Assembly: GCA_026991065.1 (NCBI GenBank)
Contig: JALXCG010000182.1
Span: forward strand, 1 to 7,570
Direction: 5' to 3'
From: JALXCG01 sp026991065 [NCBI: Gemmatimonadota bacterium]
GTDB taxonomy: Bacteria > GCA-2686955
Length of the DNA stretch: 7,570 nt
Part shown: piece by piece, positions 4 through 7,570 of the stretch
How positions within the stretch are numbered: position 1 is the first letter of the stretch
How the letters are laid out: each line of letters starts with the position of its first letter
Translations under genes and position numbers: made by a program
Notes under the pieces: model-generated
The model's database searches: none
What the model was told of the DNA's origin: nothing
Seen by the model: the letters and a program-made list of their open reading frames with translations, nothing else

Positions 4-1500
4 ATGCCCCACACCCACTCCAGCCCCGCCGCGCCGTTCCAGCCCGATCCCGATCTGATCAACAGCGACATCGCGCCGGTTCCCCCCGCCGCGCGGAACT
101 GGAGCATCTGGAGCATGGCCTCGCTCTGGGTCGGCATGGTGGTCTGCGTGCCCACCTACATGCTGGCGGCGGGGCTGATTCAGCAGGGAATGAGCTGGAG
201 CCAGGCGGTCCTCACCGTCCTGCTGGGCAACCTGATCGTGCTCTTCCCCATGCTGCTCAACGGCCACCCCGGCACCCGCTACGGCGTCCCCTTCCCGGTC
301 CTCGCCCGCGCCGCATTCGGCATTCGCGGCGCCCACGTGCCGGCGATCCTGCGCGCCCTGGTCGCCTGCGGCTGGTTCGGCATCCAGACTTGGGTCGGTG
401 GCTCGGCGATCTACCAACTGGCCAGCGCCCTGCTCGGGCTCGACAGCGGCGCGGCGCTGCTGCCCCTGCTCGGCATCAACACCGCCCAACTGATCTCCTT
501 CCTGCTCTTCTGGCTGCTCCAGGTGGTGATTGTCTACCGCGGAGTCGAGTCGATCCGCTTCCTGGAGGTGCTGGCCGCGCCCTTCCTCATCGTCATGGGG
601 TTGGCCCTGCTCCTTTGGGCCCACCAGAAGGCCGGCGGCTTCGGCGAGATGCTCGCCGCGCCCAGCCAGTTCGCCTCCGGCGGCCCGCGCGAGGGGCAGT
701 TCTGGGCGGTCTTCTTCCCTTCGCTCACCGCCATGGTCGGCTTCTGGGCCACCCTCTCGCTCAACATCCCCGACTTCACCCGCTACGCCAAGAGCCAGCG
801 GGACCAGATGCTCGGTCAGGCGCTCGGGCTTCCCGCCACCATGACCCTCTTCGCCTTCATCGGCGTCGCCGTGACCAGTGCCACCGTCACGATCTTCGGT
901 GAAGCGATCTGGGATCCCACCGTTCTGCTGGGGCGGATGGGGGGCGGTTTTTCGGTGCTGATCTCGCTCTTCGCGCTGACCATCGCCACCCTCTCCACCA
1001 ACATCGCTGCCAACGTGGTGTCGCCGGCCAACGCCTTCATCAACCTCAATCCGCGGCGCATCAGTTTTCGCTTCGGCGGTCTGCTCACCGCCGGTATCGG
1101 CATCGCGATCTTTCCCTGGAAACTGCTGGAGAGCAGTGGTGGCTACATCTTCACCTGGCTGATCGGCTACTCCGCTCTGCTCGGGCCGATCGGCGGCATC
1201 CTGATCGCCGATTACTACCTGCTGCGCAGATGCCGTCTCGACCTGAACGGCCTCTACCAGCGCCGCGGTCCCTACAGCTACCGGGCGGGATTCAACCCGG
1301 TGGCGATTGTCAGCCTGCTCCTCGCCATCCTGCCCAATCTACCCGGATTCCTGCACGCCGCCGGGCTCGCCCCCGGAGTCGGCCCATTCTGGCGCGCCCT
1401 CTACACCTACGCCTGGTTTGTCGGCTTCTTCCTGGCCGGCGCACTCTACTGGGCCGGCATGCGGCTTAGCCTGGCCGGCCGCCGGATGGCGGCCGGCTGA
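4..1500 (+). CDS. NCS1-family nucleobase/hydantoin/allantoin-type cation symporter
   Basis: This is an inner-membrane permease of the nucleobase:cation symporter-1 family, which imports purines, pyrimidines, allantoin or hydantoins with Na+ or H+. The 498 residues match the usual family length and form about 12 hydrophobic segments. Seen in the protein: the N-terminal signature NSDIAPVPPAARNW (20-33); HPGTRYGVPFPVLARAAFG (88-106); a W124-x-x-x-Q128 pair in ACGWFGIQTWVGG, with the spacing of the Trp117/Gln121 substrate contacts of Mhp1; Trp248 before SLNIPDFTRYA, which I align with Mhp1 Trp220; and STNIAANVVSPAN (331-343), where TM8 substrate and sodium ligands lie. The ATG is only three bases from the window edge, so its ribosome-binding site cannot be judged, but the N-terminus looks complete. 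Substrate is undetermined: in the family such permeases often sit beside hydantoinase or dihydropyrimidinase genes, which would be to the left of this window. It converges on the next gene with a 50-bp gap. Confidence 0.93.
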   Translation: MPHTHSSPAAPFQPDPDLINSDIAPVPPAARNWSIWSMASLWVGMVVCVPTYMLAAGLIQQGMSWSQAVLTVLLGNLIVLFPMLLNGHPGTRYGVPFPVLARAAFGIRGAHVPAILRALVACGWFGIQTWVGGSAIYQLASALLGLDSGAALLPLLGINTAQLISFLLFWLLQVVIVYRGVESIRFLEVLAAPFLIVMGLALLLWAHQKAGGFGEMLAAPSQFASGGPREGQFWAVFFPSLTAMVGFWATLSLNIPDFTRYAKSQRDQMLGQALGLPATMTLFAFIGVAVTSATVTIFGEAIWDPTVLLGRMGGGFSVLISLFALTIATLSTNIAANVVSPANAFINLNPRRISFRFGGLLTAGIGIAIFPWKLLESSGGYIFTWLIGYSALLGPIGGILIADYYLLRRCRLDLNGLYQRRGPYSYRAGFNPVAIVSLLLAILPNLPGFLHAAGLAPGVGPFWRALYTYAWFVGFFLAGALYWAGMRLSLAGRRMAAG

Positions 1501-1550: not shown

Positions 1551-3236
1551 TCACTTGGCGAGGATCAGTTTTTGTTCCGTGGTGGTTCCGGCGCTGCGCA
1601 GGCGAACGATGTAGACACCGGAAGCAACCCGGTTTCCGGAGTCGGCGCGTCCATCCCACACTGCGCGATGATCGCCCGCCGCGCGCATCCCATCCACCAG
1701 CGTGCGGATCCGCGCTCCCCGCCGGTCGTAGATCGCGAGTTGCACCCGGCCGGCGCGACCCAGATGGAACGGGATGGCGGTGCGTGGATTGAACGGGTTG
1801 GGTTCGGCCGGGCCCAGCGCGGCGCCGGGCGCCGGTGTTGCGTCACTCCCGGATTCCTCTTCGATGCCGGTGGGGTGACACATCTCGTCGTAGAGGATCC
1901 GTGCCGCCTCGACCCGGGCATCCAACTCGGAGAAGTCCCGCAGGTCGGGATCCTCCTGGGGGTAGATGCGCGCCGTCACCAACGCGATGGTGTAGGACGC
2001 ACTGTCTCCCGGGGCGATGGTGAACGGCCCGAAGGATGCAAGGAAACGGGTGTCCCTCGCCCCGACAGGATCACCGTCGCGTTCTGTGTTGAGCTGGTCT
2101 GGATCCACATACAGGTCACACCCGGGGGGATCGACGCAGAGCGAGTCGGGAAGTGTGGCGTTCTGCCAGCCGCAGAGCAACCGATACTTGTTGCTGTCTC
2201 CTTGCGGAGTTCCGCTGCCGCCGTCCGGGAAAGGTTGTCCGGGACCCCAGTCGCGGGCCGGGTCGGAGTCGCTCAGCCACCAGTTGAAACCGAGCGCCGG
2301 CCGGGCGGCGCCGGGTGTGTCGAGCAGGGCCAGAGCCAGCGCGTAGGGCACCAGAACCGAGTCGCCGGAAGACGGTTGACGATACTCCGGGCCATCGTAG
2401 TCGGCGATCCACGCATAGTCGAATCCAGCGCCCGACTCACCCGTGCTGCGCCGGCCGACGATGTCGTCGCGGGAATTGGCGGAAGCCTCGGAAATGTTGG
2501 CCGGTGTCGGCCCCACGTCTCCATCGATGTAGTAGCCGATATAGGCATCCCTGAGGAGTTGGGTGCCGATGTTGGTTACGGTCCCGTCGATGAGGATCAT
2601 GTCGCCGGCATCCTGATCCGTCCAGGAGCGGTAGATCTCCCGCACGTCGATCTGCAGCGGCAGGTGGTTGGGAGAGATGCGGGGGCAAAGCGTTGCCAAT
2701 GCCGTATCCTGATAGCCGGCGACGATCTCCAGGGGGGCGCAGGCGGCTTCGGAGTAATGCGGGGACCACGGGTCGGAAGAGCGGATGCGCAAAGTGTCGG
2801 CGCTGGAACTTCCCGCCTGGAACTCCTCCTCCAGTACCCAGCCATCGTGGCCGGTGGTCACCAGAGTGTCGTCACCGACAATGGCGCCGACCCACAAGGC
2901 GCCCAGAAACAGAAAGTCGTAACTGGCCTCGGCGGAGTAACGCAGGCCGGTGTAACCCGGGTGGTCGCAAGTTTCGGTGTAGGGGTCGTCGAAACTCTCC
3001 TCGGGCAGTCCGAGAATGCCGAAATTGGATCCGAGCAGCCAAAGATCGGCCAGGTCGACACAACGTTGTTGCACGTTTTCGCAGGCACCTCCGGCCCATG
3101 CCCGTTGTGCTTGTGGTGGCAACATCGGGGGCTGTGCGGGGAGGCTGCAGGCCCGGCGGGCGCCGGCGGCGAAAAACAGACAACACAACCCAACGAAAAC
3201 GGCAACAGTGTGCAGTTTATAGTGCTTATTGCTCAT
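1551..3236 (-). CDS. exported protein with C-terminal FlgD-like/T9SS-type sorting domain
   Basis: A 561-residue exported protein. Residues 1-30 form a signal peptide (basic start, then VAVFVGLCCLFFAAGA). The middle (about 50-455) is a beta-rich ectodomain I cannot assign; it contains GTVTNIGTQLLRDAYIGYY (218-236), a style common in large secreted-protein families of FCB-type bacteria. After an Ala/Pro/Gly linker (465-478), residues 479-561 form a FlgD Ig-like/type A sorting domain: PNPFNPRTAIPF, then LAIYDRRGARIRTLVDG, AVWDGRADSGNRVASGVYIVRL and a short basic tail. In the type IX system such domains direct outer-membrane export and are often removed; whether this organism has that system is not visible here. 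The frame stays open upstream to 3671, but I chose the ATG at 3236 because it starts the signal peptide, has AGGAG five bases upstream (3242-3246) and lies below a good promoter. The large plus-strand frame across it lacks any recognisable protein. Confidence 0.88.
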   Translation of the reverse strand: MSNKHYKLHTVAVFVGLCCLFFAAGARRACSLPAQPPMLPPQAQRAWAGGACENVQQRCVDLADLWLLGSNFGILGLPEESFDDPYTETCDHPGYTGLRYSAEASYDFLFLGALWVGAIVGDDTLVTTGHDGWVLEEEFQAGSSSADTLRIRSSDPWSPHYSEAACAPLEIVAGYQDTALATLCPRISPNHLPLQIDVREIYRSWTDQDAGDMILIDGTVTNIGTQLLRDAYIGYYIDGDVGPTPANISEASANSRDDIVGRRSTGESGAGFDYAWIADYDGPEYRQPSSGDSVLVPYALALALLDTPGAARPALGFNWWLSDSDPARDWGPGQPFPDGGSGTPQGDSNKYRLLCGWQNATLPDSLCVDPPGCDLYVDPDQLNTERDGDPVGARDTRFLASFGPFTIAPGDSASYTIALVTARIYPQEDPDLRDFSELDARVEAARILYDEMCHPTGIEEESGSDATPAPGAALGPAEPNPFNPRTAIPFHLGRAGRVQLAIYDRRGARIRTLVDGMRAAGDHRAVWDGRADSGNRVASGVYIVRLRSAGTTTEQKLILAK

Positions 3237-3265
3237 CGGTTCTCCTATCTCGATCCCAGGACTAC

Positions 3266-3314
3266 TCTCGGCCTTCTTCCGAGACTTTGTTGCCACCGGC
3301 GTCCCGCCGGCGGC
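3266..3314 (-). promoter_or_regulatory. structured 5' leader: two hairpins upstream of the secreted-protein gene
   Basis: The transcript leader predicted from the promoter at 3324-3352 is about 80 nt long and can fold into two stems. The promoter-proximal one pairs 3305-3314 with 3292-3301: ten pairs including one G-U, with a 3-nt loop. The second pairs 3279-3284 with 3266-3271: six pairs with a 7-nt loop. Neither covers the ribosome-binding site at 3242-3246. They could protect the 5' end or tune expression. No known riboswitch class is recognised. Confidence 0.4.
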
Positions 3315-3323
3315 GCTCCCATT

Positions 3324-3352
3324 CTGATAGGACTGGTGGGCGGCGGTGTCAA
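3324..3352 (-). promoter_or_regulatory. sigma70-like promoter for the secreted-protein gene
   Basis: On the minus strand a perfect -35 box TTGACA (3352-3347) is followed after exactly 17 bases by TATCAG (3329-3324), a 4-of-6 match to the -10 consensus. Transcription would begin near 3317, about 80 bases before the ATG at 3236. The site lies inside the longer open frame that reaches 3671, which argues that this frame's upstream part is not translated. The match was found by eye. Confidence 0.55.
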
Positions 3353-3432
3353 CGAGGAGAACCAAAATAAAAACGGTCGGGCTGCGGGGCCGCCGGAGCA
3401 TCCTGATGCGGAAGCCAGGGAGATGAGCTGTT

Positions 3433-3609
3433 GCCGCCGCTCTCTCGTTGGGTAAATCGGGCGCCGCAACTTGAGGCCGCCGACTCACCGAGCAGGCCGG
3501 CGGCTTCGGCGCGGTCGGTGAGTCCGCCGTCGCCGGCGTTGTACGGAAAGCGCATTCGGTCGCGCGGATCCATTCCAGTGATGACGACGTCCAGGAGCGC
3601 GTCGCCGTC
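3433..3609 (-). pseudogene. remnant of a VCBS/FG-GAP (UnbV-like) repeat protein
   Basis: A minus-strand frame with no start codon and strong third-position GC encodes a recognisable VCBS/FG-GAP repeat: DGDALLDVVITGMD, then NAGDGGLTDRAEAAGLLG, then SSCGARF. The family pattern is roughly DGDxDLxVTG, NxGDGxFTDVTEAAGL, SxGAAFxDYDxDG. The second module is already degraded where the Asp-rich DYDxDG calcium-type loop should be (here TQRESGG, ending at 3433). Coding-like character fades below about 3430 and the frame stops at 3349-3351. Intact members are large secreted repeat proteins forming beta-propeller-like blades. About 59 codons remain, squeezed between the hairpin at 3612-3634 and the promoter at 3324-3352. 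The frame is the same as that of the gene ending at 3634, but a TAA separates them. Family similarity is judged by eye. Confidence 0.55.
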
Positions 3610-3611
3610 CG

Positions 3612-3634
3612 ACCGGCGCGGATGACGCGCCGGT
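3612..3634 (-). terminator. perfect 9-bp GC hairpin at the end of the 141-residue gene
   Basis: ACCGGCGCG at 3612-3620 and CGCGCCGGT at 3626-3634 pair perfectly, leaving a 5-nt loop (3621-3625). The stem starts with the last base of the TAA stop of the upstream gene. No T-run follows on the minus strand, so release would need Rho or another factor, or the stem may instead protect the mRNA 3' end. The placement directly on the stop codon supports a 3'-end role. Confidence 0.5.
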
Positions 3635-4059
3635 TACTCCGCCCACCAGAGGGTGGCCGCCAAATGCTCACCGGCCGCCTCGGTTCCGCTCTCGCAGGGG
3701 AGTAGCGGCATATCCTTGACCGAGCCGAGGGAGATCACCTGGGCTTCGCCGGGGCCGCCGAGCAGGCGGTAGTTGCCGGCGAAGGTGGCCAGGGGGGTGC
3801 AGGACTCCAGATCCTCCCGAACCAGCCAGTGCATCTCGTAGGCGTTGTCGCCGAAGGCCCAGTTGCCCAGTACCGCGCCGGGGACGCACTGCGGAACAGG
3901 GATCTGCACGGTGCCGGTGATGCGGTTGTCGTTGTTCAGCTCCAGATTCCACTCGGCACCGTCGCCATCGACGAAGCAGAGGCTGATGGCACCCGCGTTG
4001 GTGGCGGCGGCGGTGAGGAGAGTGGCGGTCGCGAGGAGGGTGGCGAAAACGGTTTTCAC
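3634..4059 (-). CDS. small exported protein of unknown function, four cysteines
   Basis: A 141-residue protein I do not recognise. Residues 1-24 (MKTVFATLLATATLLTAAATNAGA) form a clear signal peptide with an AxA-like cleavage site, so the mature product is periplasmic or secreted and about 117 residues long. It is rich in beta-prone and acidic segments (FVDGDGAEWNLELNNDN, about 29-45) and has four cysteines (28, 58, 87, 122), enough for two disulfides. It ends in ATLWWAE. I chose the GTG at 4059 because it opens the signal peptide and has GGAG eight bases upstream (4068-4071); an upstream in-frame ATG at 4227 would bury the signal under about 56 Arg/Pro/Ser-rich residues. Downstream come the hairpin at 3612-3634 and a VCBS remnant. 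No promoter is convincing. VDGDG resembles a calcium loop, but a single copy is not diagnostic. Confidence 0.72.
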   Translation of the reverse strand: MKTVFATLLATATLLTAAATNAGAISLCFVDGDGAEWNLELNNDNRITGTVQIPVPQCVPGAVLGNWAFGDNAYEMHWLVREDLESCTPLATFAGNYRLLGGPGEAQVISLGSVKDMPLLPCESGTEAAGEHLAATLWWAE

Positions 4060-4545
4060 GGGGGAGACTCCAGAATGAACAGTAGAGCCGGCGGGACGCG
4101 GCCGTTGGCACAACACCGGCGGTGACGAAACCATAACAATAACCTGGATCGCGCGGCAGGGGGCGATCGCCGTGGAATCATGGGGAGGACTCGGGGGCGG
4201 TCCGTCGAGCATGGCTGCGGCTCCCAATGTAGGCTGCGGAGGACGGTGAGTTGGTCTTCCGTCCCACCCCGGCGCCGCGCGCAGGAGACTTGACCCGCAT
4301 CACCTGCCGGGGCTGTCGTCGGCTGATGCTGCCGCTACGGAAACAGCGCCGTGCACTCCGGCAGCGACCGCGCTCACTTCGATCCACACCTCGAAGAGAC
4401 GCAGCTTGTTCGTCCCCACTGACCGGGTTGGCGCCGAGCAATGTCGCCGGAATCTGCCGGCCATGGTGGGCGATGCGCTTGCGGCCGATGCCGTGGATCG
4501 CGCCCGGCCCTTCAGCAGAAATCGGGACAGAACATCAGGGGAACC
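4060..4545. other. intergenic stretch, no supported gene
   Basis: Nearly 490 bases with no gene I can defend. The open frames on both strands give Arg/Pro/Ser-rich translations without domains. Minus-strand codons at roughly 4280-4500 show a mild third-position GC bias in alternating frames, which could be a decayed gene, but no family is recognisable. The AT-richer patch at about 4125-4150 lies upstream of the GTG at 4059 and may hold its promoter, although no good -35/-10 pair was found. Confidence 0.5.
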
Positions 4546-4800
4546 TCAGCCCGATCTGGCAGGGCGGAAGCCGATGGTGTGGGAGGGGTAGGAGGGGTCG
4601 AAGGCATGGCGGCTGGAGACAGGAAGGTAGGAGGGGAGTTGCCCCAACTGCCGCCCCGTACGACCCGGCAGTCCTGGCCCCCGGATCTCCCTGGATCGGT
4701 TGCCGGTGAAGCGCCCAGATCGCAGTCCCACGCGTCATCGCGCCACTGAGCCCATGTCCAACGTTGCGCAGAGAAGAAACGCCATTGGAAAACGCGAGTT
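4546..4800 (-). pseudogene. frameshifted C-terminus of a formylglycine-generating-enzyme-like (FGE-sulfatase) gene
   Basis: Three minus-strand frames joined end to end read as the C-terminal part of an FGE-sulfatase/SUMF1-like domain. Before about 4760: FSNGVSSLRNV. From 4760: WTWAQWRDDAWD, ATDPGRSGGQDCRVVRGGSWGN. From about 4636 to the stop at 4546: SSRHAFDPSYPSHTIGFRPARSG. These correspond to the family landmarks GNVWEW, ATDPxG, RVxRGGSW and the closing IGFRxxR. Each junction is consistent with one lost base, and no single frame carries more than one block. The N-terminal two thirds is missing: the 3' end of the neighbouring gene lies at 4919. Family members either convert sulfatase Cys to formylglycine or, more often in bacteria, serve as divergent secreted or lectin-like domains; this copy should make nothing functional. 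Similarity above about 4800 is not convincing. Paired sequencing indels are the alternative explanation. Confidence 0.65.
4587..4636. repeat. 11-bp direct repeat in a G-rich tract
   Basis: GGTAGGAGGGG occurs at 4587-4597 and again at 4626-4636 on the plus strand, 28 bases apart, in a purine-rich stretch (about 4578-4640). The second copy coincides with the distal frameshift of the FGE-like pseudogene. The first copy sits in a run of closely spaced G-tracts that could adopt quadruplex-like structure. Confidence 0.6.
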
Positions 4801-4918: not shown

Positions 4919-6889
4919 TCAGCTGCTCTCGCGGAGCACGATCGGGGCGTCGCTCAGGCGCTGAAACTCTGAATACAGGGCCTGCAGGTCGGGGTAGGCG
5001 CTTTGCGGCCAGAACGCTCGCCTCAGTCGCAAACACCGTTGCAAGGAGACGGCGTTGCCGACCCGGCGCGCGATCATTTGGCAGGAACCGACGCGATTCA
5101 CCACCGAGGTGTCGGCCGGCAGCGCCTCGATCTCCAGGTTCTGCGGTAGTTGTAGTTGAATGATCTCGGTGCGGACGTTGGCGAAATCGAAGACGATCGG
5201 CGTGACTCGGTGAGCAGCAGTCAACCGTGGTTCCCGAAAACCGGTCCAACTTAGCGGCCGCAGCAGCAACCGTGCACCCAACTCCTCGCCGCGGTTGCCG
5301 AGATCGAGTGTGGCGCGCGTTGCCAAGAGCGGCGGATCCGAGGACGCCTTTTCGATCCGCAGAGAGTCCACCGCATCGGCGAGCAGGACCCGTTGCAGCA
5401 GGTTGGAGAGTGACGCGGCGAGTGGTTCCTCATCGGTGGTTACCCCCAGCGTGTCGCGAATTGCCCAATACTCTTGCCCACTCCAACGATCGCTGCAGTG
5501 GCCGCGACAATGGCCCTCGGAGTCGATGGCGACACTGAGGGTTCGTCGATGGGTGTTCGCGCGCGGCGCCGAAAAGGGGATGGTGACCAACCGCTGTTTG
5601 ACCGCTCCGACCAGCAGCGCAGTGGTTCCTTCGAGTGTCCAGGGCAGTTGTCCGCAGGGGTAGGAATCGAACTCAAGCGAATAGAAGTCGAAACCGCCGT
5701 CATCGCGCTCCAGTGCCACCAAGTCCGTGGTGAACTGCCAGATCTTGAGGTCGCGGACGAAGACCCCCTGGTCGCGTGGCAGCCCGAAGGCCAGATGGGC
5801 CGGCAGATCAAGCGATCGCAGCAGTTCCCAGAGCAGCGCCTGCCGCTCGTGTGTGGTCCCGCAGCCACGTTGTAGCATCATTTCGCAGGAGCGATTCCGC
5901 TTGGACGCTTTCTTCGGCTGCTCGACCCGGCGGATGTGGGCGCGAACCCAGTTGTAGGCGGCGCATACCCGCTCCTCCCGGCTGCCCTCCCGCGGCAACT
6001 CCGCTTTCACTTGGTCCAAACGCTTCGAATCGCGTGTAAAGAACGCGTGGATCCAGCGTGTGGATTTCTCCGCTTGCCGATCCCAAAAGCCATGGGTCGA
6101 GCGATCGTCGCCATAGTAGAAGAAAGCGTTGGCGCTAACCATCCTCTTTTCAAAACTGAATGGCTCCGCCACATAGGGGGGAAGATTGGTCGCAGTGAAC
6201 AGTAACTCGCGCGGATCTCCGCTGTCCGGATGCCGTTCCACCCGGACCCAGTCGGCGCAGTTGCGCAGCACGTAGTTGGGCCGCAGAGGGCGGGTCTTGG
6301 TGCCGATGGCGACTGTGAACCCGTGCAAGTAGGGACCCAACCGCCAAGTGTAGCGGTTGCGCAACAACGGGATCTCTTTCTGGATCTCCCAGGGCGGCGG
6401 CACCGGAAATGAACTCTTGATGCGAATGCGAAAAGCGTAGTCGATGATGCAGTCGGTGGTGACTCCCTGCAGAGAGAAACACTGCTCCTCGATTGTGAGA
6501 TCATGGCTGCGCACCACTTCGTGCTTGCGCAGATCGCCTTTGTCGAGTTTAAACTCCCGGCCGTCGCGGAGTGTCGTCCGGGCGACGAAAGCTTCCAGTT
6601 TTTGTTGTTTCCGAAGCTGTGGAATGGTTCCTTCCGCCTGCGCAACTCCCTCGGGACCCAGAATGCGGATGCGCCGATAGAGGGTGTAGCGCTGAATGTC
6701 ATGATGGATCTGAGTGTCGTCGTTGGTGACTTCCTCGAAGATCATCACCGCGTCCTGCACCGGGCAATCGGCGGGTGCGGCAACCGCCCAGTCATCAGCG
6801 TCGATCGGTCGCAACTCCAGCTTTCCACCTGCCCACGCCCGGGCCGCCGCCAGAGAGATCAACAACAGGCAGACGAGTGTTCGCTTCAT
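4919..6889 (-). CDS. exported DUF3857/transglutaminase-like protein, catalytic triad not conserved
   Basis: A 656-residue exported protein of usual family length. Residues 1-20 are a signal peptide (MKRTLVCLLLISLAAARAWA, AxA site). About 50-210 matches DUF3857 (RYTLYRRIRILGPEGVAQAE; LRDGREFKLDKGDL). About 300-425 is the transglutaminase-like fold (VCAAYNWVRAHIR, ERQALLWELLRSLDLPAHLAFG). About 440-656 is a beta-rich C-terminal domain. Aligning by eye to family signatures, the nucleophile position (GxCxDxAxLL) is Thr346 in GTTHERQALL, the histidine of FNH is Thr388 in QFTTDLVAL, and the acid is Glu406 in YSLEFDSYPCGQLP. Cys343 is nearby but out of register. It is therefore probably non-enzymatic. 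The role of the family is poorly known, thought to be cell-envelope associated. The ATG overlaps the upstream stop (ATGA, 6886-6889) and has AAGGAG nine bases before it (6899-6904), inside the upstream gene, which points to coupled translation. Confidence 0.85.
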   Translation of the reverse strand: MKRTLVCLLLISLAAARAWAGGKLELRPIDADDWAVAAPADCPVQDAVMIFEEVTNDDTQIHHDIQRYTLYRRIRILGPEGVAQAEGTIPQLRKQQKLEAFVARTTLRDGREFKLDKGDLRKHEVVRSHDLTIEEQCFSLQGVTTDCIIDYAFRIRIKSSFPVPPPWEIQKEIPLLRNRYTWRLGPYLHGFTVAIGTKTRPLRPNYVLRNCADWVRVERHPDSGDPRELLFTATNLPPYVAEPFSFEKRMVSANAFFYYGDDRSTHGFWDRQAEKSTRWIHAFFTRDSKRLDQVKAELPREGSREERVCAAYNWVRAHIRRVEQPKKASKRNRSCEMMLQRGCGTTHERQALLWELLRSLDLPAHLAFGLPRDQGVFVRDLKIWQFTTDLVALERDDGGFDFYSLEFDSYPCGQLPWTLEGTTALLVGAVKQRLVTIPFSAPRANTHRRTLSVAIDSEGHCRGHCSDRWSGQEYWAIRDTLGVTTDEEPLAASLSNLLQRVLLADAVDSLRIEKASSDPPLLATRATLDLGNRGEELGARLLLRPLSWTGFREPRLTAAHRVTPIVFDFANVRTEIIQLQLPQNLEIEALPADTSVVNRVGSCQMIARRVGNAVSLQRCLRLRRAFWPQSAYPDLQALYSEFQRLSDAPIVLRESS

Positions 6890-7570
6890 TCCAAGTCACT
6901 CCTTGGCGCCAGGAGCAGGGACCATCCCCGCAGCCGTTTGCGCTCGATCTCGAACTGGCGAGCAGCGCTGCTCTCCGCCGCATCCAGCATTCTTCCCGTG
7001 CGGGTCTGGCGGGAGTGGAAGCGCAGCACTCCCTGCTCCTCCTCCAGATCCGCCTGCAGTTCAGCCACAGCACAAACAGCGCTTCGCCGCGGATGGTGTA
7101 TTTCAACCCCGGTGCCCTGTGGCAGTTGCCAGTCGACGGTGATCTCCTCCACCCCGGGGGGCCCGAACCAGATGGGTTGCTGGCGTTCGGAACCGATCGC
7201 CACGGGCGGCTCGGCGCCGTAGAATGGGTTGGGATGAAAGAGGGTGAGCCCCGCGCTGCGGCGAACGTAGGCCGGCACACTCAGGTGGAAACTCTCCAGC
7301 AGCAGATCGCCGCAATCGATCAGTGAATACTGCGTGACCCGGGCCGCGGAGAGGTGGGGCGCCAGCCGGGACTGCCACTCCTGCTCCCGAACAGAAGCGG
7401 CCGCGCCGCGAACCGCGCAGCGCTGCTCTCCGGCCAGCAGACCGAAGCTGGAGACACAAACAGTTGCCTCCAGCCCACCGTCTGCGGCGAGCGTGGCGGT
7501 CGCCTCCAGCCGTCGCAGCAGTGCATCGACCGGCGGTTCGGGCAGCCGTCGCAAAGCGGTTTCACCGCGG
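6886..7570 (-). CDS. DUF3857/transglutaminase-family protein, C-terminal part (5' end beyond window)
   Basis: Only the last 227 codons are present; the frame is open through the right edge (the first visible residues are RGETALRRLPEPP). A TTG at 7554 could be read as a start, but it has no ribosome-binding site and the domain continues upstream of it. The fragment is the C-terminal, DUF3858-like portion: the strand LEATATLAADGGLEATVCVS, then a segment around PIWFGPPGVEEITVDWQLPQG, ending near RLRGWSLLLAP. This parallels the end of the next gene (PIVFDFANVRTEIIQLQLPQN ... RLSDAPIVL), so the two are divergent tandem paralogs. Its stop overlaps the next start by four bases, marking an operon transcribed from beyond the window. 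Whether it keeps a catalytic triad cannot be seen. Confidence is high for coding status and moderate for family. Confidence 0.75.
   Translation of the reverse strand, partial: RGETALRRLPEPPVDALLRRLEATATLAADGGLEATVCVSSFGLLAGEQRCAVRGAAASVREQEWQSRLAPHLSAARVTQYSLIDCGDLLLESFHLSVPAYVRRSAGLTLFHPNPFYGAEPPVAIGSERQQPIWFGPPGVEEITVDWQLPQGTGVEIHHPRRSAVCAVAELQADLEEEQGVLRFHSRQTRTGRMLDAAESSAARQFEIERKRLRGWSLLLAPRSDLE

What the first reader, a model, noticed from the sequence alone, without database searches (positions are those of the whole stretch)
4919..6889. Transglutaminase-like protein with all three triad positions substituted
The fold landmarks are intact, but the positions expected to be Cys, His and Asp read Thr346, Thr388 and Glu406. 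Loss of all three in an otherwise well-kept 656-residue gene suggests a pseudoenzyme with a binding or scaffolding role, not decay. Seen directly: the residues. Family knowledge: the C-H-D triad. Inference: non-catalytic function.
Basis: partly seen in the sequence, partly recalled or inferred. Interest (0 to 1): 0.6.

Follow-up and report, generated by a model that had tools for sequence, protein, structure and literature searches.

The report
Dead transglutaminase from enzyme–pseudoenzyme operons
This gene makes a probably exported protein built like a protein-modifying enzyme whose three working residues are all gone, and its relatives in other bacteria mostly sit next to a working copy, which suggests the two act as a pair.

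Summary
The 656-aa ORF 4919-6889 (-) is a Transglut_core/DUF3858 protein. The Asp position is best read as Ser404, not Glu406: AlphaFold models of it and of an active relative put the three positions at the same helix start, strand start and strand end.

It is not an isolated oddity. In 127 stretches taken from 386 searched genomes, DUF3857-type transglutaminases are often adjacent genes or fused domains. Of 42 close pairs, 0 have two intact triads and 41 have exactly one (shuffle mean 9.9 both-active, minimum 3 in 20,000). Ten wider same-strand pairs also have one active and one dead. The window protein falls in a clade of 39 rows, all dead (support 88). Dead copies in two sister-genome pairs are under purifying selection (dN/dS 0.07-0.10).

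Most likely it is the non-catalytic partner of an active DUF3857 transglutaminase-fold enzyme. For the window itself this is inferred: the upstream gene is a paralog, but the contig ends before its catalytic core. Dead transglutaminase domains are known; eight searches of the paper library found no description of this pairing.

The parts
4919..6889 (-). P0001, 656-aa DUF3857-type transglutaminase-fold pseudoenzyme
6830..6889 (-). residues 1-20, probable Sec signal peptide (K-R, hydrophobic run, A-W-A before G)
   Evidence: read by eye; no signal-peptide program was run
6098..6769 (-). residues 41-264, N-terminal beta domain in the DUF3857 position
   Evidence: structural matches to 3kd4, M1 aminopeptidase N-domains, ITIH1 and ribophorin I; PF12969 not reached
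5570..6091 (-). residues 267-440, transglutaminase core
   Evidence: PF01841 27.7 bits over cut-off 23; matches to TGM2, TGM3, factor XIII, LapG, XPC/Rad4
5852..5854 (-). Thr346, position of the catalytic Cys (first residue of helix 346-359)
5726..5728 (-). Thr388, position of the catalytic His (first residue of strand 388-394)
5678..5680 (-). Ser404, position of the catalytic Asp (just after strand 400-403)
4940..5161 (-). residues 577-650, DUF3858 C-terminal domain
   Evidence: PF12970 28.2 bits, cut-off 27
6899..6904 (-). AAGGAG ribosome-binding site inside the end of the upstream gene
6886..7569 (-). 3' part of an upstream paralog (227 aa after the core), ATGA overlap with P0001; cut by the contig end, catalytic core not seen
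   Evidence: (43.9 bits to profile positions 424-632); no Pfam match

Best explanation
P0001 is a probably exported pseudoenzyme: DUF3857-like domain, transglutaminase core, DUF3858 domain, with all three catalytic residues replaced (Thr346, Thr388, Ser404). It descends from an old lineage of dead paralogs that are mostly kept beside an active DUF3857 transglutaminase-fold paralog, as touching genes; in other lineages of the family the two are also found as one fused chain. I propose that the dead copy binds the active copy, its substrate, or both, outside the cytoplasm, and tunes or targets the active copy's thiol chemistry (proteolysis or transamidation). Shown here: the substitutions, the kept fold, the dead clade, the one-active-per-pair rule in relatives, fusions, and purifying selection on three dead relatives in two sister-genome pairs. 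Inferred: physical complex, location, direction of the effect, and that this organism has an active partner.
For: Triad loss by three alignment methods and by matching AlphaFold landmarks in dead and active proteins. 42 close same-strand pairs in 31 genomes: 35 active-dead, 5 dead-active, 1 active-partial, 1 dead-dead, 0 active-active. Shuffling labels within pairs gives a mean of 9.9 active-active, minimum 3 in 20,000; 41 pairs with exactly one active against a mean of 21.2, maximum 35. The 17 pairs of the later fetch, chosen from DUF3857 matches and not by a dead query (4 of the 17 contigs were also on the dead query's list), all have exactly one active. Ten wider same-strand pairs also have one active and one dead; in 7 of them the frames touch or overlap, in 3 they lie 0.6, 1.4 and 4.6 kb apart. 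4 of 42 close pairs are fused in one ORF. P0001 lies in a clade of 39 rows, all dead (support 88). In 20 stretches from G084's phylum, 16 of 18 multi-gene stretches have exactly one active on the same strand and none has two. Active and dead members have parallel distances (r 0.85, 41 pairs, 0 of 5,000 permutations). dN/dS 0.10, 0.07 and 0.09 for dead genes against 0.06 and 0.04 for their active partners in two sister-genome pairs.
Against: No active DUF3857 copy was found in the window's own genome (84% complete, 902 contigs). The upstream paralog's core is missing, and its 10 best C-terminal matches are all dead members, so it may be a second dead copy; such matches classify well when strong (190 of 210) but hardly when weak as here (113 of 208). 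16 dead copies, the window included, have no active member on the same strand in the fetched stretch, and in 6 of 87 genomes only dead copies were seen. The gene's nearest relatives are only about 22% identical, so selection on this very gene cannot be measured. The only other held genome of the phylum lacks the gene. The fusions lie outside P0001's own clade. No interaction data exist.
Confidence: 0.6

Rival explanations
1. It is dead and useful, but works alone: an exported binding or anchoring protein that uses the old substrate groove to hold peptides, with no active partner.
For: 16 dead copies without an active member on the same strand in the fetched stretch and 6 of 87 genomes with only dead copies seen; no active copy seen in its own genome. 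[quoted passage not shown]
Against: Its clade is mostly found beside active members; unpaired cases include short or cut contigs (for example L201 and L246).
Confidence: 0.2
2. The dead copy is an inhibitor or immunity-like partner that keeps the active paralog silent until it is needed.
For: Same pairing evidence as the best explanation; touching genes suit one-to-one dosage.
Against: Fused forms exist (4 of 42 close pairs), which would need cutting to release an inhibitor; nothing here gives the direction of the effect.
Confidence: 0.12
3. It is still an enzyme with a moved or changed active site, using Thr345/Thr346 or Cys343 with the neighbouring His347.
For: His347 directly follows Thr346; in GP42 transglutaminase the His sits right after the Cys, and in DUF1839 Ser/Thr hydroxyls are kept in the site (PMC10318531, passages). 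Vasohibins use Cys-His-Ser (PMC4866520, abstract and passages).
Against: The variants with a moved His in those passages keep the Cys; Cys343 and His347 are not found in any of the 22 relatives aligned; no base is left at the His position; the residues at the Cys column of the dead members of pairs are scattered (S, T, P, A, R, W, V, G, Y, K, D, L).
Confidence: 0.06
4. It is a decaying pseudogene.
For: All three residues lost; long branch in the tree; no close relative in which its own selection could be measured.
Against: Intact 656-codon frame with ribosome site and coding-like GC by codon position; confident fold; purifying selection in dead relatives.
Confidence: 0.03

Closest known systems
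BDI_1141 of Parabacteroides distasonis (PDB 3kd4), solved protein with DUF3857-DUF3858 architecture
   Same: Matches along the whole chain; best structural match (Z 18.9, rmsd 6.4, 479 residues aligned) and best profile match in PDB (1.3e-36). It also reads Pro where the Cys should be (YGTPLEIA, alignment).
   Different: 13% identity; its function and gene neighbours were not examined here. The library holds 2 papers with the string 3KD4, one unrelated, one that lists it as a fold match.
Active DUF3857 transglutaminase-fold proteins (the intact partners, for example L232:6456-8561)
   Same: Similar length, full-length homology and the same landmark positions.
   Different: They keep Cys-His-Asp; P0001 has none of the three.
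Bacterial inactive transglutaminase RloB (fused to seven transmembrane helices)
   Same: A bacterial transglutaminase domain reported as inactive, in an operon with an aspartic protease and an ATP-grasp protein (PMC12239564, abstract and passages).
   Different: Other architecture; the operon partners are not active paralogs of the same family.
Cyk3 and XPC/Rad4
   Same: Transglutaminase-fold domains used without the full catalytic site; [quoted passage not shown] XPC/Rad4 are among the structural matches; that they are inactive is recalled.
   Different: Eukaryotic; Cyk3 keeps His and Asp, and no pairing with an active paralog is described in the passages seen.
AdoMetDC prozyme of Trypanosoma brucei
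   Same: A catalytically dead paralog that heterodimerises with the live enzyme to form the active complex (PMC6221367, abstract).
   Different: Another enzyme and pathway (fold recalled as unrelated); an analogy for the mechanism only.

Membership tests
DUF3857-type transglutaminase-like proteins | Transglutaminase core at family threshold | tested here: met
   PF01841 27.7 bits, cut-off 23
DUF3857-type transglutaminase-like proteins | DUF3858 C-terminal domain at family threshold | tested here: met
   PF12970 28.2 bits, cut-off 27
DUF3857-type transglutaminase-like proteins | DUF3857 domain at Pfam threshold | tested here: not met
   no PF12969 match in P0001 or its genome, although relatives L060:2174-4276, L061:6538-8505 and both L232 proteins do match and the N-terminal fold is there. 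It is therefore filed as a divergent relative, not as a Pfam DUF3857 member
DUF3857-type transglutaminase-like proteins | Full-length homology to accepted members | tested here: met
   hhalign of active profile A3 to profile A2 (P0001 first), probability 100, 586 columns; 3kd4 Z 18.9
Catalytically active transglutaminase/Cys peptidase | Cys-His-Asp triad | tested here: not met
   Thr346, Thr388, Ser404
Active-dead DUF3857 pair | Adjacent paralog on the same strand | tested here: met
   6886-7569 with ATGA overlap matches the family profile
Active-dead DUF3857 pair | The neighbour keeps the triad | tested here: inconclusive
   the contig ends before its core; G000:C590 carries a different transglutaminase; C-terminal similarity points to dead members but weakly
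Active-dead DUF3857 pair | Physical complex of the two | not testable with these tools
   needs co-purification
Transglutaminase with seven membrane helices (RloB type) | Seven transmembrane helices after the core | tested here: not met
   after the core the model is beta-rich with three or four helices, to residue 654, and Pfam finds DUF3858

The most novel reading that the evidence does not exclude
Many bacterial lineages carry an exported two-part transglutaminase-fold machine in which one paralog does the chemistry and a second, catalytically dead paralog is a conserved subunit; the arrangement arose or was reshaped several times (at least 4 label changes forced by well-supported branches), sometimes with two or three dead copies per live one, and P0001 is a dead subunit in a phylum with only two genomes held here.
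Probability: 0.45. Interest if true: 0.8.

Novelty: new variant of a known kind. Interest (0 to 1): 0.6.

Why it matters
DUF3857 proteins are common (99 of 386 genomes searched) but almost absent from the papers searched (1 paper for DUF3857, a gene name only; 0 for DUF3858). That none of the neighbours examined both keep the triad gives a testable idea of what the family does: the working unit is often a live-dead pair. It would offer a large natural set of enzyme-pseudoenzyme pairs, fused and unfused, for studying why cells keep a dead copy.

Tried and rejected
Glu406 as the Asp position: rejected on spacing and structure. Cys343 as a moved nucleophile: not conserved. The missing part of the upstream paralog on G000:C590: rejected, that ORF looks like another transglutaminase type (judged by eye; it matched the family profile only over its core), and the contig ends share no overlap. 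Classifying the upstream paralog by its C-terminus: its 10 best matches are dead members, the best at 37.4 bits. In the control the top hit agreed with the query's class in 190 of 210 cases at any strength, but in 113 of 208 when only hits under 40 bits were used; no control query had 10 dead among its 10 best weak hits (most: 8 for active, 9 for dead queries). I leave it open. Conserved neighbours that would name the function: the commonest flanking clusters were in 7 of 60 arrays, an ABC transporter ATPase (named by eye) and one confined to arrays L233-L244 of G084's phylum. phmmer against PDB with P0001 alone: nothing useful. NCBIfam: no match over cut-off for P0001. Genome-contig scan with P0001: no relative. 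Literature searches for the pairing: searches listed papers on inactive transglutaminase domains but none that describes this pairing in its listing or in the passages I opened; most subscription papers are not in that library.

Limits of the census. Active was scored as Cys, His and Asp or Glu at profile columns; 2 of the 107 have Glu. Of the 68 without Cys, 3 have a gap in that column and 7 keep His and Asp or Glu. Of 193 matched domains, 13 lacking both the Cys and His columns were dropped, leaving 180. The first 80 stretches were chosen with a query of three dead proteins, a bias towards dead copies; of the last 47, 45 came from DUF3857 matches and 2 from the first list; both printed lists were cut or not fetched in full. 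Pairs are related to each other, so shuffles overstate independence. dN/dS was computed for 12 gene comparisons; only 5 had dS under 1 and are quoted; the other 7 (dS 1.2 or more, or saturated) gave, where finite, 0.23 and 0.11 for dead and 0.26 and 0.06 for active genes. The tree used all paired and single dead domains but only 25 of the 66 single active ones. The tree used 77 rows chosen around the P0001 branch; its main split has support 88, not starred, and the tool warned that P0001 and L060_1i are two long branches that meet. The 20 stretches are the 19 best new places plus one lower (G458:C107). Neighbours were defined by distance on stop-to-stop frames, without a check for small genes between; in a few stretches (for example L107, L165) such frames overlap widely. 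No superposition of models was possible.

Full report
What was checked. The ORF 4919-6889 on the minus strand encodes 656 residues. It starts with a stretch that looks like a Sec signal peptide (read by eye), overlaps the upstream ORF by ATGA, and has AAGGAG nine bases before its ATG. Pfam finds Transglut_core (27.7 bits, cut-off 23) and DUF3858 (28.2, cut-off 27); DUF3857 is not reached. The AlphaFold2 model has mean pLDDT 82.8 and pTM 0.80. Its best solved match is 3kd4 (BDI_1141, Z 18.9 over 479 residues, rmsd 6.4); the core, about 267-440, matches human transglutaminases, factor XIII, LapG and XPC/Rad4 at Z about 8-10, and the N-terminal domain matches M1 aminopeptidase N-domains, ITIH1 and ribophorin I at Z about 8-11 (Foldseek).

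The catalytic positions. A MAFFT alignment with 22 relatives, a second alignment with 18 of them, a profile HMM over 119 domains and hhalign of the profile of 14 active members agree that Thr346 is at the Cys and Thr388 at the His. For Asp, the HMM column is D in 96 of 119 domains and P0001 has Ser404 there; as I read, hhalign gives Tyr403. Glu406 falls on a column that is T in 69 of 119. The AlphaFold model of an active relative supports Ser404: helix 380-393 begins at Cys380, strand 423-429 at His423, and Asp452 follows strand 446-451. In P0001 helix 346-359 begins at Thr346, strand 388-394 at Thr388, and Ser404 follows strand 400-403. Cys343 is found in none of the 22 relatives aligned.

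The wider pattern. A profile of P0001 and its two best relatives found matches in 81 of 386 genomes, and DUF3857 in 99 of 386. From these lists I fetched 127 stretches and scored 180 core-bearing domains, the window's included: 107 with Cys, His and Asp or Glu; 68 without Cys; 2 with Cys but no His; 3 cut. Among 42 close same-strand pairs, 35 are active then dead, 5 dead then active, 1 active then partial (Cys-Asp-Asp), 1 dead-dead and 0 active-active; 4 are fused in one ORF. Shuffling labels within pairs gives 9.9 active-active pairs on average and never fewer than 3 in 20,000; drawing from all domains gives 14.8 on average, minimum 5. All 17 pairs in the later fetch, chosen from DUF3857 matches, have exactly one active; 4 of these 17 contigs had also matched the dead query. 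Ten further same-strand pairs at wider spacing are also one active and one dead; in 7 the frames touch or overlap, in 3 they are 0.6, 1.4 and 4.6 kb apart. The 42 pairs come from 31 genomes. Against this, 16 dead domains, the window included, have no active member on their strand in the fetched stretch, and in 6 of 87 genomes only dead copies were seen.

Evolution. In a tree of 137 rows with the catalytic columns removed, the active and dead labels need 8 changes (at least 4 by well-supported branches) against 45.6 when shuffled, so the labels are strongly clustered and pairs exist in several separate lineages. Distances among active and among dead partners run in parallel (r 0.85, 41 pairs, 0 of 5,000 permutations), which fits inheritance as a unit, though shared descent alone gives this too. 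P0001 groups with L060_1i and sits in a clade of 39 dead rows (support 88; the P0001-L060_1i join is a meeting of long branches). In 20 stretches from G084's phylum, picked by similarity to P0001 and its two relatives, there are 28 dead (one a fragment) and 17 active domains outside the window; 16 of 18 multi-gene stretches have exactly one active on the same strand (dead-active, dead-dead-active, dead-dead-dead-active, active-dead), one (L240) has its active on the other strand, one (L246) shows three dead copies near a contig end, and none has two actives. For two sister-genome pairs with dS under 1, dN/dS is 0.10 and 0.07 (two dead genes) with 0.06 (active), and 0.09 (dead) with 0.04 (active). 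These dead copies are therefore kept, not decaying.

What the window lacks. The upstream ORF 6886-7569 matches the family profile at positions 424-632 but the contig ends before its core. Its ten best matches are dead members; a control shows that matches this weak classify little better than chance (113 of 208), though strong ones do well (190 of 210 at any strength). No other DUF3857-type protein was found in this genome, which is 84% complete in 902 contigs; C590 holds a different, active-looking transglutaminase. The one other held genome of the phylum lacks the gene. So the live partner of P0001 is predicted, not seen.

How it most likely works. I propose that P0001 is exported and binds an active paralog or its substrate through the kept fold, helping or restraining thiol chemistry there. 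Touching genes and fusions among relatives argue for equal amounts and contact. The direction (activator, targeting subunit or inhibitor) cannot be told from sequence.

What is known. Inactive transglutaminase domains are known in bacteria: RloB (PMC12239564, abstract and passages), an inner-membrane protein whose loss raises vesicle output (PMC12096838, abstract and passages), and N-terminal domains of polymorphic toxins (PMC3482391, passages). Eukaryotic Cyk3 lacks the Cys and its domain is important for stimulating chitin synthesis (PMC4758748, abstract and passages). 3kd4 itself reads Pro at the Cys position. A dead paralog that forms the active complex with its live partner is known in prozyme (PMC6221367, abstract). 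DUF3857 appears in one paper of the library, as a gene name (PMC6341742, passage), and DUF3858 in none. I found no account of live-dead pairing in this family in searches.

Noticed in passing
window 6098-6769 (-), model residues 41-264: The N-terminal domain resembles M1 aminopeptidase N-domains, ITIH1 and ribophorin I (Z about 8-11); ribophorin I even aligns loosely over the whole model (rmsd 17), perhaps hinting at a shared origin of DUF3857 and an oligosaccharyltransferase subunit.
   Followed up: no
L113, L167, L171, L173: Active and dead DUF3857 modules fused in one ORF of 1,286-1,390 residues.
   Followed up: partly
L242, L233, L244, L238: Arrays with two or three dead copies before one active copy.
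   Followed up: partly
L086:5146-7116 and L122:4343-6325: Members that keep Cys and Asp but have Asp at the His position, perhaps half-way states.
   Followed up: no
window 1551-3671 (-): Protein ending in a FlgD_ig/type IX sorting-like domain (41.8 bits, residues 640-692), so probably secreted; its true start is probably downstream of the listed GTG (by eye).
   Followed up: no
window 4-1500 (+): NCS1-family nucleobase/allantoin-type permease (TIGR00800, 394 bits).
   Followed up: no
L187 (G000:C590) 3164-4654 (+): A different transglutaminase with an intact-looking GDC...YHMW...LDPA site in the same genome.
   Followed up: partly
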